Of a stretch of 64,000 nucleotides of DNA, positions 12,782-43,666 are shown piece by piece. The DNA is from Leeuwenhoekiella nanhaiensis (GTDB lineage Bacteria > Bacteroidota > Bacteroidia > Flavobacteriales > Flavobacteriaceae): contig NZ_KZ319287.1 in assembly GCF_002744755.1 (NCBI RefSeq), positions 186,001-250,000 of the forward strand, given 5' to 3'. The notes under the pieces are model-generated. The model saw only the letters and a list, made by a program, of their open reading frames with translations, did no database searches and was not told the DNA's origin. How positions within the stretch are numbered: position 1 is the first letter of the stretch; every line of letters starts with the position of its first letter. The position numbers were made by a program, and so were the translations under genes.

Positions 12782-13867
12782 TTATTTTAATGCTTTTACG
12801 GCTCTCGCGATCACGCTTTCAATCGTGGTCGCGTTTGCAATCGTATACTGGTCTGTATGATTTTGAACTTCGTTTGCCGTGGTTTGACCAATGCAAACTG
12901 CAAGCGTATCTTTTAAATCGTTTTGTTTTGTAAAGCTCTGCACTCCGCTCGGACTAAAAAACAAAACGGCGTCAAATTTTTGCTCAAATTTTTTAGCGTT
13001 TAAGCCGGTTTGATATACTTCAATCTCCTGAAAAAGTATCTGGTTTTCTTTTAAAATTTGAGGCAATTCGTCTCTTCGCTTATTGCCGCAAAAAAAGCAA
13101 AAATGCGCGTCTTTGTGGTTTTTTGCGATAAAATCGGCTAAATCTGCTGCGTTTTGAGCACTTTTTGCCACGTTGAAGCCATTTTTTAAAAGCAAGGCTT
13201 CGGTTTTGGTGCCAACGCAATAGCACCTCAGCCCAGGCCTCATCTCCGGCCCTTCTCCCGCCGGAGAAGGGAGCTTTTTGTCGTTCGCGAGCTCACTTTT
13301 TTTAAGGCGAACTTTGTTTAGAAAAGCCTGGACTGCATTTTTACTGGTGAAAATGAGATTTTCTAGTTGCTGCGGAAGTTCAAAATCAAGAAATTCAATG
13401 TGTATCGCATCGTATTCTACCACTGAAAAACCGGCTCCCAGAATCAGGTTCTTTTGGGAGACAGAAAGTCTTTTAGTAGAAAGAACCCTCACCCCAACCC
13501 CTCTCCCGCCGGAGAGGGGTGAGGATTCTTTTATTTCAACTATGGCCTTGATTATCTCTTTAGGGTCTCTAAAAACGGTTTCGTTTTCAAACCGAAGTAC
13601 TTTATAGCCTAGTGCTTTGAGGTGTAAATCACGGATTTCGTCTTTCTCTTTTTGTTCAGGGTGGTTGTGATAGCCTCCGTCTAACTCAATGACGAGGTTG
13701 AGCTCGTAACAGAAAAAATCAACTATATAATTTTTGAGTGGATGCTGTCTGCGAAATTTGAGGCCCTTTACTTTGCTATCACGAAGCAACTCCCAAAGCA
13801 CTTTCTCTGCTTCGGTAAGCTCTTGCCTAAGCAAGCGAGCGAATTTTATGTGATTGCTTCTCTTCAT
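12782..13867 (-). CDS. hemD: DUF559 endonuclease domain fused to uroporphyrinogen-III synthase
   Basis: 361 residues in one frame. Residues 1-115 form a complete DUF559 domain, a Vsr/PD-(D/E)XK-like nuclease fold with D50 and E61-L-D63 as likely catalytic acids and YKVLRFEN near 88. Residues 116-127 (SPLSGGRGVGVR) are the translation of a palindromic repeat. From VLSTKRL at 128 to the end is HemD (about 235 residues), which closes hydroxymethylbilane into uroporphyrinogen III. A second palindrome is translated inside HemD at about 198-210. The HemD part looks intact otherwise, and its place between hemC and hemE is the expected one. A GTG at 13490-13492 (codon 126) inside the repeat could start HemD alone as M-R-V-L-S-T-K. 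Whether fusion or separate protein is made is open. Confidence 0.9.
   Translation of the reverse strand: MKRSNHIKFARLLRQELTEAEKVLWELLRDSKVKGLKFRRQHPLKNYIVDFFCYELNLVIELDGGYHNHPEQKEKDEIRDLHLKALGYKVLRFENETVFRDPKEIIKAIVEIKESSPLSGGRGVGVRVLSTKRLSVSQKNLILGAGFSVVEYDAIHIEFLDFELPQQLENLIFTSKNAVQAFLNKVRLKKSELANDKKLPSPAGEGPEMRPGLRCYCVGTKTEALLLKNGFNVAKSAQNAADLADFIAKNHKDAHFCFFCGNKRRDELPQILKENQILFQEIEVYQTGLNAKKFEQKFDAVLFFSPSGVQSFTKQNDLKDTLAVCIGQTTANEVQNHTDQYTIANATTIESVIARAVKALK
13238..13275 (-). repeat. Palindromic repeat copy inserted in frame inside hemD
   Basis: Arms CCCTTCTCC (13250-13258) and GGAGAAGGG (13263-13271) around a CGCC loop, plus a tail reading GGAGATGAGG on the minus strand. It is almost identical, with two changes, to the intergenic copy at 43570-43608. 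In the hemD frame it encodes LPSPAGEGPEMRPG between the conserved HemD parts, just before CYCVGTKT. No frameshift or stop is introduced. Confidence 0.93.
13486..13524 (-). repeat. Palindromic repeat copy at the DUF559/HemD junction
   Basis: Arms CCCCTCTCC (13498-13506) and GGAGAGGGG (13511-13519), loop CGCC, and a G-rich tail GGTTGGGGTGAGG on the minus strand pointing into hemD. The right arm can also pair with the tail, so alternative hairpins are possible. The tail supplies a GGGG stretch and an in-frame GTG that could restart translation for HemD. Confidence 0.93.
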
Positions 13868-13871
13868 ATAG

Positions 13872-13914
13872 CTTCCTTCTCCATTTGGAGAAGGATTAAG
13901 GATGAGGGTTAGGG
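13872..13914 (+). repeat. Palindromic repeat copy between hemC and the DUF559-hemD gene
   Basis: CCTTCTCC, loop ATTT, GGAGAAGG, then a tail with GGATGAGG and GGTTAGGG reaching the hemC stop codon. It belongs to the same family as the copies at 13238, 13486 and 43570, with a different loop. On the minus strand its arm reads GGAGAAGG just ahead of the DUF559 ATG and could act as a ribosome binding site. Confidence 0.85.
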
Positions 13915-14832
13915 TTAAAGTTCTTTCTTAATAGTTTCCATCAACTCGCGGCCACCGCTTTCAAGGATTTTTAGGGCGCACAAAGCGCCAAAATCCTGAG
14001 ATTCACGTACCGGAATGGTTTCCTCGATTTCCATCTTTTGGCTTCCGTCAAGACTGAAAAGGGCACCATGAAAATGAATGTGTTCATCTTTGATTTCTGC
14101 ATAAGCGCCAATGGGTGCTGTGCAGCCACCTTCCAGTTTTCGCAGGAATTCGCGTTCTACGCGTGTGGCGAGTTCGGCATTTTTATCGTTGAGTTTGGCG
14201 CAGGCTTCTCTGCAAAACGAGTCGTCTTCCATCACCGCAATTACCATCGCACCTTGAGCCGGTGCCGGAATCATCCAGTCGAGCACAATATGATTTTCAG
14301 GTTTGAGGTTGATGCGCTCCAGGCCTGCTTTCGCAAAAATGGCTCCGGCCCAGTCGTTATCGGCTACTTTTTGAAGCCGGGTATTTACATTACCGCGTAA
14401 ATCAACAACCTGATGCTTCGGATATTTGTGCAGCCACTGCGCCTTACGTCGCAAACTGCCTGTGGCAATGGTAGTCGCATCTTCAAATGCAGCTTCGGTT
14501 TTTTCGCCCTTAAAAACAAAAATGTCTTCCTGTGCCGCACGGGGTAAAACCGCTCCCTGAACGATGCCTTTTGGCAATTGCGTGGGTACATCTTTCATAG
14601 AGTGCACCGCAATATCAACCGTTCCGTTAATCATTGCAACATCGAGGGTTTTCGTAAAAATACCGGTGATACCCAGTTCGTAAAGCGGTTTATCGAGTAT
14701 GAGATCGCCGGTAGATTTAACCGAAACCAGTTCGGTTTTATAACCCAGTTTGTTGAGTTGATCCTGCACGGTATGGGCCTGCCAGAGCGCGAGTTCGCTA
14801 TCGCGGGTGCCTATGCGTATGGTTTTTGCCAA
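13915..14832 (-). CDS. hemC: Hydroxymethylbilane synthase (porphobilinogen deaminase)
   Basis: 305 residues, full length. The dipyrromethane cofactor is bound by the Cys in LEGGCTAPIGAY near residue 235, and RGNVNTRLQK and SMKDVPT are the conserved substrate segments. It polymerises four porphobilinogens to hydroxymethylbilane. The start is 3 bp from the hemA stop. The stop codon touches the tail of the palindromic repeat downstream, so insertion of the repeat seems to have spared or slightly reset the hemC end (C-terminus ...TIKKEL). Confidence 0.97.
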   Translation of the reverse strand: MAKTIRIGTRDSELALWQAHTVQDQLNKLGYKTELVSVKSTGDLILDKPLYELGITGIFTKTLDVAMINGTVDIAVHSMKDVPTQLPKGIVQGAVLPRAAQEDIFVFKGEKTEAAFEDATTIATGSLRRKAQWLHKYPKHQVVDLRGNVNTRLQKVADNDWAGAIFAKAGLERINLKPENHIVLDWMIPAPAQGAMVIAVMEDDSFCREACAKLNDKNAELATRVEREFLRKLEGGCTAPIGAYAEIKDEHIHFHGALFSLDGSQKMEIEETIPVRESQDFGALCALKILESGGRELMETIKKEL

Positions 14833-43518: not shown

Positions 43519-43549
43519 TCCCTCTAAATCTCCCTTCAAAGGGAGACTT
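43519..43549. repeat. REP-like palindrome
   Basis: TCTCCCTTC/GGGAGA-type palindrome (TCTCCCTTCAAAGGGAGA) with a partner CCCTCT at one side. Same plan as the element at 17946. Confidence 0.6.
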
Positions 43550-43569
43550 TTACATTTTAGTTGATAATA

Positions 43570-43608
43570 AGCTCCCTTCTCCGGCGGGAGAAGGGTTGGA
43601 GATGAGGT
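43570..43608 (+). repeat. Intergenic copy of the hemD-type palindromic repeat
   Basis: Almost identical to the copy inside hemD (two changes over 38 bases) in opposite chromosomal orientation: arms CCCTTCTCC and GGAGAAGGG, loop GGCG, tail TTGGAGATGAGG. Confidence 0.92.
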
Positions 43609-43666
43609 GGTTTTTAGATGCCGGCAATAAAAATAATACTAACAATAAATCTTAGCTTTATGCCGT

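What the first reader, a model, noticed from the sequence alone, without database searches (positions are those of the whole stretch)
13486..13914. DUF559 nuclease bounded by inverted palindromic repeats and fused to HemD
Seen: a complete DUF559 domain (Vsr/PD-(D/E)XK-like) is flanked by two hairpin-plus-tail repeats in inverted orientation with tails outward, and its frame runs through the inner repeat into HemD. Known: DUF559 genes are stand-alone proteins of about 110-120 residues and HemD is normally not fused to one. Inference: the 429-bp unit is a small mobile element whose nuclease may promote its own spread or that of its repeats, as homing endonucleases do, and it landed exactly at the 5' end of hemD. 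This is the best candidate for an undescribed system in the window.
Basis: partly seen in the sequence, partly recalled or inferred. Interest (0 to 1): 0.85.

Follow-up and report, generated by a model that had tools for sequence, protein, structure and literature searches.

The report
Hairpin-bounded nuclease inserted in host genes
A tiny nuclease gene bounded by hairpin repeats sits in frame on a haem-synthesis gene here, and the same kind of unit turns up inside many unrelated bacterial genes, which suggests a widespread, little-noticed selfish element.

Summary
Confirmed: ORF 13867-12782(-) is a DUF559 nuclease fused in frame to HemD, bounded by two inverted hairpin-plus-tail repeats. It is not unique. 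Among 110 high-scoring DUF559 loci of the phylum, C/T-armed hairpins lie within 250 bp on both sides in 64 and on either side in 96; 1,000-1,250 bp away, 0 and 4 of 106; around GIY-YIG genes, 0 and 1 of 26. Of 113 loci, 41 are in frame with longer sequence, including LeuRS, MetH, HsdR, RecG, HisA, HemF. Nuclease and repeat sequences co-vary across families. In Leeuwenhoekiella the hemD unit is present in six and absent in seven genomes and looks old, with losses. At leuS, inserts differ less than their flanks at fourfold sites in four of seven pairs, as after lateral spread. The nearest solved relative outside DUF559 is homing endonuclease I-Bth0305I. Best reading: a splicing-free, homing-like element with REP-like hairpin ends. 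Cleavage is untested; some repeat-rich genomes do not fit.

The parts
13868..13912 (-). Left repeat: C-rich tail (outward) then hairpin CCTTCTCC/GGAGAAGG, between the hemC stop and the DUF559 ATG
   Evidence: a tail-like remnant stands at empty sites of G004 and G005, weakly G003
13532..13867 (-). DUF559 nuclease domain (PF04480, aa 7-111 of the ORF) and the start of the linker
   Evidence: invariant D50, E61, D63, H67, D76 among the 20 sequences of A2; dN/dS 0.03-0.11 in the nine of ten pairs where it could be computed
13486..13531 (+). Right repeat: hairpin CCCCTCTCC/GGAGAGGGG plus C-rich tail, translated in frame as the DUF559-HemD linker
   Evidence: linker aa 118-134 has pLDDT below 50
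12782..13485 (-). HemD (uroporphyrinogen-III synthase) part of the fused ORF
   Evidence: PF02602; no second HemD match for G000
13236..13271 (+). Third, degenerate hairpin-plus-tail copy inside the hemD coding sequence
   Evidence: fold z only -1.2; a related copy is visible in G004 and G005 but not in G003 (read)
13915..14832 (-). hemC (host gene upstream of the insertion)
   Evidence: used as flank
43519..43612 (.). Solo inverted doublet of hairpin-plus-tail repeats without a DUF559 gene
   Evidence: one hairpin has the core of the copy at 13250

Best explanation
This is one copy of a small selfish element: a Vsr/EDxHD-like nuclease (DUF559) bounded by hairpin-plus-tail repeats that match its own lineage. 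The unit spreads homing-like: the nuclease cuts an empty target, or a target that resembles the repeat, and repair copies the unit in. Because the repeats can be read through without stops and encode Gly/Pro/Ser-rich disordered linkers, the unit can sit in frame in loops and linkers or at the ends of host proteins, some of them essential, without splicing. Solo repeat doublets would be non-autonomous derivatives. Shown here: structure, association, in-frame hosts, filled/empty polymorphism, lower synonymous divergence of the insert than of its flanks in four of seven leuS pairs, purifying selection on the nuclease. Inferred: nuclease activity, cleavage target, repair-driven copying, and that the repeats are recognition sites.
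For: Hairpins flank DUF559 on both sides in 64 and on either side in 96 of 110 loci, against 0 and 4 of 106 farther out, and 0 and 1 of 26 for GIY-YIG genes; the detector is conservative, as it misses the left hairpin of the window. Named genomes: either 15, both 4 of 24; far 1 and 0 of 22. Outside Bacteroidota: either 18, both 10 of 25; far 3 and 0 of 25. The 4 DUF559 copies of this genome each have a hairpin repeat on at least one side, of differing sequence. Cross-family Mantel r 0.187, p 0.0005, 2,000 permutations. 41 of 113 in frame with longer sequence; 29 of the 31 scanned hit another Pfam family. leuS: filled in 8 and empty in 5 of 13 genus members, at least three insert lineages at one loop. 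Fourfold differences, insert v flanks: G000-G008 10/41 v 104/178 (p 1e-4), G000-G001 10/41 v 102/176 (p 1.1e-4), G008-G001 1/50 v 60/183 (p 1e-6), G002-G009 4/38 v 60/184 (p 0.0055), uncorrected. The A1 profile hits 3r3p (I-Bth0305I) at E 2e-6; Foldseek E 1.4e-3, prob 1.00. The repeat-encoded linker is disordered.
Against: No excess similarity in the other three leuS pairs: G000-G005, G008-G005, G001-G005 (p 0.72, 0.32, 0.51). hemD inserts are about as divergent as their flanks. No co-conversion tract is visible around leuS. G312 has 260 copies of a related repeat, but its only DUF559 carries a different 37-bp inverted repeat; G040 has seven copies and no DUF559 match. By the scan seven of 25 loci outside Bacteroidota lack the hairpins (E. 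coli, Geobacillus, Salipiger, Gluconobacter, Streptomyces, Picosynechococcus 7002, Novosphingobium; the last has a long inverted repeat all the same), as do nine of 24 named loci; the Photobacterium region is full of such hairpins also far from the gene. Phage-type homing endonucleases carry an extra DNA-binding region (PMC3943268, passages), for which these short proteins have no room. Of the invariant residues, E61 and D76 but not D63 and H67 are matched in I-Bth0305I (alignment). Plain recombination of the insert could also give the leuS pattern.
Confidence: 0.6

Rival explanations
1. The hairpins are REP/REPIN elements moved by something else (a RAYT transposase or an unknown enzyme), and the DUF559 gene is a passenger trapped between two of them.
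For: Solo doublets without DUF559 exist (window 43519-43612; G198). G312 and G040 have repeats without a matching DUF559. RAYT-type genes (PF01797) are in 19 of 27 genomes examined, this one included.
Against: PF01797 has no match in G001, G002, G005, G006, which hold the leuS unit. The five RAYT loci read show no C/T-armed hairpins within 400 bp. In the genus seven of eight copies of the pattern searched lie at leuS units. DUF559 and repeat sequences co-vary.
Confidence: 0.2
2. DUF559 is an ordinary repair or restriction nuclease gene, and the hairpins are transcription terminators or mRNA-stabilising stems of small genes.
For: A DUF559 protein, VsrA, causes the SOS response of a methylase mutant in Caulobacter and was proposed to be a Vsr-like repair enzyme (PMC12907096, passage). 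Several hosts are restriction-modification proteins.
Against: Hairpins lie on both sides in most loci, often as inverted pairs with tails, and inside coding sequence. GIY-YIG genes do not have them. Hosts also include LeuRS, MetH, HisA, HemF.
Confidence: 0.1
3. The fusion is a useful two-domain enzyme: DUF559 modifies or regulates HemD.
For: The reading frame is kept and the nuclease is under purifying selection at hemD.
Against: Same-genus HemD lacks it in seven genomes, including one 93% identical. The same module sits on many unrelated hosts.
Confidence: 0.05
4. The insert is spliced out, as an intein or an intron.
For: In-frame position in genes some of which are essential, as for inteins and introns; a DUF559 gene is mentioned in the intein section of PMC9403480 (passage).
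Against: No Rfam family reached its gathering score over 13100-14100; the two weak hits are unrelated families. No intein family among the Pfam matches.
Confidence: 0.05

Closest known systems
EDxHD (Vsr-like) homing endonucleases, type I-Bth0305I
   Same: Catalytic core: profile E 2e-6 to 3r3p, Foldseek prob 1.00; PMC9403480 already assigns a DUF559 gene to the EDxHD family (passage); insert-specific lateral spread in part of the leuS pairs.
   Different: No intron or intein found, no room for an extra DNA-binding region, in-frame residence without splicing signals, ends formed by hairpin repeats.
REP/REPIN elements with RAYT transposases (REPtrons)
   Same: Hairpin-plus-tail repeats, inverted doublets, solo copies, a nuclease gene between repeats, intragenic copies (PMC3733652: passages, section 16, first part of section 17).
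   Different: DUF559 is not a HUH tyrosine transposase; tails are not GTAG or CGTC; copy number of the searched patterns in this genus is very low.
CGTC-tagged REPs
   Same: Palindromes with a short tag and intragenic copies; described as not associated with transposase genes (PMC3733652, section 16).
   Different: The tail here is CCTCA- or CCCCTCC-like; a link to DUF559 was not tested in those species.
Vsr mismatch endonuclease and VsrA of Caulobacter
   Same: Related fold (1vsr, Foldseek E 0.086); VsrA holds a DUF559 domain (PMC12907096, passage).
   Different: No repeat-bounded, mobile context is described in the passage read.
Rickettsia palindromic elements (recalled; seen in a search listing only)
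   Same: Palindromes in frame inside proteins.
   Different: No nuclease gene of their own, as recalled.

Membership tests
DUF559 (PF04480) | Profile match over the curated cut-off | tested here: met
   123.6 bits against 20.6
EDxHD homing endonucleases | Vsr-like EDxHD catalytic core | tested here: inconclusive
   fold and profile related; in the alignment E61 and D76 are matched in I-Bth0305I, D63 and H67 are not; the motif was not mapped further
EDxHD homing endonucleases | Extended DNA-binding region and long target site | tested here: not met
   judged by length only: most stand-alone open frames listed are about 116-200 aa for a 109-position domain; stand-alone copies were not domain-scanned with Pfam
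EDxHD homing endonucleases | Carried in an intron or intein | tested here: not met
   at this locus
EDxHD homing endonucleases | Insert spreads into empty alleles | tested here: inconclusive
   for: four of seven leuS pairs; against: the other three and hemD
EDxHD homing endonucleases | Site-specific cleavage | not testable with these tools
   needs a bench assay
REP-RAYT (REPtron) | HUH tyrosine transposase between the repeats | tested here: not met
   the gene is DUF559; no PF01797 match in four genomes that carry the leuS unit
REP-RAYT (REPtron) | GTAG (or CGTC) tag beside the hairpin | tested here: not met
   read from the window sequence; other loci not scored for it
REPIN | Inverted doublets dispersed in the genome | tested here: inconclusive
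   met in G198 and one doublet in this window; the exact pattern only twice in this genome
Intein or intron | Splicing domains or RNA family match | tested here: not met

The most novel reading that the evidence does not exclude
DUF559 nucleases with lineage-matched hairpin ends are a separate, cross-phylum class of REP-type mobile elements that needs no tyrosine transposase and lives in frame inside host proteins without splicing; they, or relatives, could be the missing partner of REP families for which no transposase is known.
Probability: 0.4. Interest if true: 0.92.

Novelty: new variant of a known kind. Interest (0 to 1): 0.8.

Why it matters
Short palindromic repeats are widespread in bacteria, and for some families the agent that spreads them is unknown; PMC3733652 (section 16) says of CGTC repeats that they are not associated with transposase genes. 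A small nuclease with its own repeat ends is a directly testable candidate for such an agent. It would also add a way for a selfish element to live in essential genes without splicing, through repeats that double as flexible protein linkers, and would explain odd Gly/Pro/Ser-rich inserts and DUF559 fusions that look like ordinary domains.

Tried and rejected
Recent insertion at hemD: set aside in favour of old insertion with losses, because insert identity tracks flank identity and empty sites of G004 and G005, weakly G003, resemble the left tail; a tail-like target that was there before cannot be excluded, and the tree alone does not decide (about five gains or five losses, by my count). Large co-conversion tract at leuS: not seen. 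GIY-YIG as a second nuclease of the same system, suggested by a GIY-YIG domain in one HsdR frame (L088): no hairpin found there, and 1 of 26 GIY-YIG loci has one. RAYT as mobiliser: see rivals. One common repeat for all DUF559: rejected. Outward tails as a general rule: only for in-frame copies. Simple amplifier model (DUF559 present, so its repeat is abundant): in the phylum sample 35 of 42 pattern-positive and 135 of 254 pattern-negative genomes have a DUF559 match (p 1.8e-4; counts compiled by hand, phylogeny not controlled), but G312 and G040 contradict it. Intron or riboswitch: nothing over threshold. Defence system: two weak PADLOC hits for the window protein (mREase_II E 3.2e-6, DpdF E 6.8e-6), none for L091. 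Hairpin counts depend on detector and anchor: 64 and 96 of 110 against 69 and 98 of 110 with a variant. A first count on the named loci, anchored on matches that themselves contained the repeats, gave 11 of 21 either side and 1 of 21 both (four short loci left out); re-anchored on the domain it is 15 and 4 of 24.

Full report
What is there. ORF 13867-12782 on the minus strand (361 aa) is DUF559 (PF04480, aa 7-111) followed by HemD (PF02602, aa 142-353). Two hairpin-plus-tail repeats bound the nuclease part in inverted orientation, tails outward: 13868-13912 between the hemC stop and the ATG, and 13486-13531 inside the ORF. A third, degenerate copy lies in the hemD coding part at 13236-13271. 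The exact pattern occurs only twice in the 4.37-Mb genome, both times here. The AlphaFold2 model (20 sequences, mean pLDDT 78, pTM 0.52) has two mostly confident parts; stretches of three or more residues below 50 are 1-3, 118-134 (written by the right repeat), 144-153 and 200-205 (in the region of the third copy).

Host.

Relatives at hemD. Among 13 genus members (own included), the fusion is in G000, G002, G006, G009, G010, G011 and absent from G001, G003, G004, G005, G007, G008, G012 (in G007 hemC is not upstream). G004 HemD is 93% identical to that of G000 and has no DUF559. In G004 and G005, more weakly in G003, the short hemC-hemD gap resembles the left tail but lacks hairpin and nuclease. 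Insert and flank identities are similar in the ten pairs compared (G006 could not be included), and dN/dS of the nuclease is 0.03-0.11 in the nine pairs where it could be computed; dS is above 1 except in G010-G011, where dN/dS is 0.094. I read this as an old insertion, vertically inherited and lost several times.

Relatives at leuS. The genome has three more DUF559 copies. By eye and by scan they carry hairpin repeats of other sequences, on both sides for two and on one side for the third. One sits in frame in leuS, before the editing domain. In 13 genus members this loop is filled in eight (G000, G001, G002, G005, G006, G008, G009, G012) and empty in five (G003, G004, G007, G010, G011); the four genomes of other genera searched are empty. 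The inserts fall into at least three lineages: pairwise insert identity is 82-98% within and 57-65% between them (G012 not in that comparison). Fourfold-site differences are lower in inserts than in flanks for G000-G008 (10/41 v 104/178), G000-G001 (10/41 v 102/176), G008-G001 (1/50 v 60/183) and G002-G009 (4/38 v 60/184), p 1e-4, 1.1e-4, 1e-6 and 0.0055, uncorrected; not for G000-G005, G008-G005, G001-G005. So four of seven pairs show it, and pairs sharing a genome are not independent. I saw no second leuS for G000 among the listed hits, whose other non-DUF559 matches in it are about 30% identical, so the interrupted enzyme probably works. No co-conversion tract was found: G000 and G004 flanks are 91-97% identical over the 600 bases on either side of the site.

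How general. I fetched the best-scoring DUF559 matches down to about E 1e-30 (one skipped at a contig edge, G218): 113 loci, 76 genomes, 29 families. This is the high-scoring part of the matches in 170 positive genomes of 296, not a random sample. C/T-armed hairpins within 250 bp: both sides 64, either 96 of 110 (three dropped for short flanks); at 1,000-1,250 bp: 0 and 4 of 106. For in-frame copies the signal is mostly in the first 100 bp (55 of 82 sides; 4 of 82 in the next 100). The detector misses the left hairpin of the window itself, so the counts are conservative. GIY-YIG loci: 0 both, 1 either, of 26 (four of 30 dropped at contig edges). Left flank against reverse-complemented right flank exceeds the 95th percentile of mismatched loci in 60 of 110. 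A good part of the loci also have long direct repeats on the two sides, up to about 300 bp, several of them inverted doublets present on each side. Named loci: either 15, both 4 of 24 (one dropped), far 1 and 0 of 22. Outside Bacteroidota, 25 loci that I picked for spread from 57 plasmid-collection records with a match, some of them chromosomes filed as plasmids: either 18, both 10, against 3 and 0 far away. Seven lack them by the scan, among them E. coli and Geobacillus; Photobacterium has ten more such hairpins far from the gene.

In-frame hosts. 41 of 113 loci have more than 130 aa of open frame beyond the domain on at least one side; 32 have long open frame on both sides. I scanned 31 of the 41: 29 hit another family: HemD, LeuRS, MetH, HsdR, HsdM, type ISP, Eco57I-type and MmeI-like enzymes, a DNA methylase, UvrD-type helicases, RecG, methylmalonyl-CoA mutase, a PurL-type amidotransferase domain, HisA-type, HemF, RNase H, N-formylglutamate amidohydrolase, an M23 peptidase. 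Restriction-modification hosts are frequent, which a defence reading would also predict.

Nuclease and repeat belong together. Over the 102 loci with a hairpin segment, protein identity and repeat similarity correlate across families (r 0.187, p 0.0005; 66 stand-alone 0.144, p 0.0005; 36 in-frame 0.293, p 0.0015). The correlation is weak but far outside the permutations. Within genomes, distant copies mostly have unlike repeats, while a 93%-identical pair (L101, L119) and several 54-65% identical copies of G204 have like ones. The pattern GGAGGRTTWRGGNGGGG occurs eight times in the genus, seven of them at the leuS unit and one elsewhere in G004 (its reversed control once in G000); in G198 it occurs 14 times, four beside the DUF559 gene and ten elsewhere, mostly as inverted doublets. 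PF01797 (RAYT-type) has no match in G001, G002, G005 and G006, and the five RAYT loci read show other hairpins or none. In G249 repeat copies away from the gene resemble the flanks of its DUF559 locus L089 (by eye).

What the nuclease is. The profile of 40 domains finds 3hrl (an endonuclease-like protein that it matches over its length) at E 1e-33 and 3r3p, the catalytic domain of homing endonuclease I-Bth0305I, at E 2e-6; Foldseek agrees (E 2.2e-7 and 1.4e-3) and places Vsr lower (1vsr, E 0.086). In the alignment the invariant E61 and D76 are matched in I-Bth0305I, D63 and H67 are not. The link of DUF559 to the EDxHD family is already in print (PMC9403480, passage). What I did not find in print is the link to hairpin repeats or the in-frame host range: searches in the open-access library only, listings and passages; Taylor et al. 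2011 is not held. PMC3733652 (passages, section 16, first part of section 17) describes REPs inside genes and states that CGTC repeats are not associated with transposase genes.

How it most likely works. Shown: a conserved nuclease under purifying selection, bounded in most loci by hairpins that co-vary with it, present or absent at fixed sites, and at leuS in some genomes younger than the divergence of the host gene. Inferred: the nuclease cuts an empty site or a repeat-like site, repair copies the unit, and the hairpins are its binding or processing sites. The repeats also encode flexible linkers, so an in-frame unit can be tolerated; once inside an essential gene only an exact loss is viable, which would help it persist.

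Results against. G312 (260 copies of a related repeat) has one DUF559 with a different, perfect 37-bp inverted repeat, between what read by eye as atpA and atpG; G040 has repeats and no DUF559 match. Outward tails are not general. Three leuS pairs and the hemD pairs show no lateral signal. Confidence is therefore moderate for the mechanism and high for the association.

Noticed in passing
window 43519-43612: Solo inverted doublet of hairpin-plus-tail repeats upstream of a 1136-aa ORF, without a DUF559 gene; one hairpin has the core of the copy at 13250.
   Followed up: partly
window 13236-13271: Degenerate repeat copy inside hemD, translated in frame; low-confidence stretch in the model.
   Followed up: partly
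L088 (HsdR frame, aa 251-317): A GIY-YIG domain in frame in the same HsdR that holds a DUF559 domain, with no hairpin found around it.
   Followed up: partly
L299: DUF559 between what read by eye as atpA and atpG, with a perfect 37-bp inverted repeat on its two sides.
   Followed up: no
L308 and L310: Two Deinococcus plasmids carry DUF559 at different positions of the same kind of hpa gene cluster.
   Followed up: no
L237 (leuS of G003): The empty leuS loop holds another short palindrome-like insert, so the loop may be a general hotspot.
   Followed up: no
L209, L216, L223: Frames that read by eye as IleRS, a CinA-like protein and MetH with DUF559 in frame; no family scan was made.
   Followed up: no
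L186 and the list: Rows of small GIY-YIG genes with equal scores, for example three in a row in G170.
   Followed up: no
L264, L265: RAYT-type genes of G000 and G004 with their own, unlike hairpins.
   Followed up: partly
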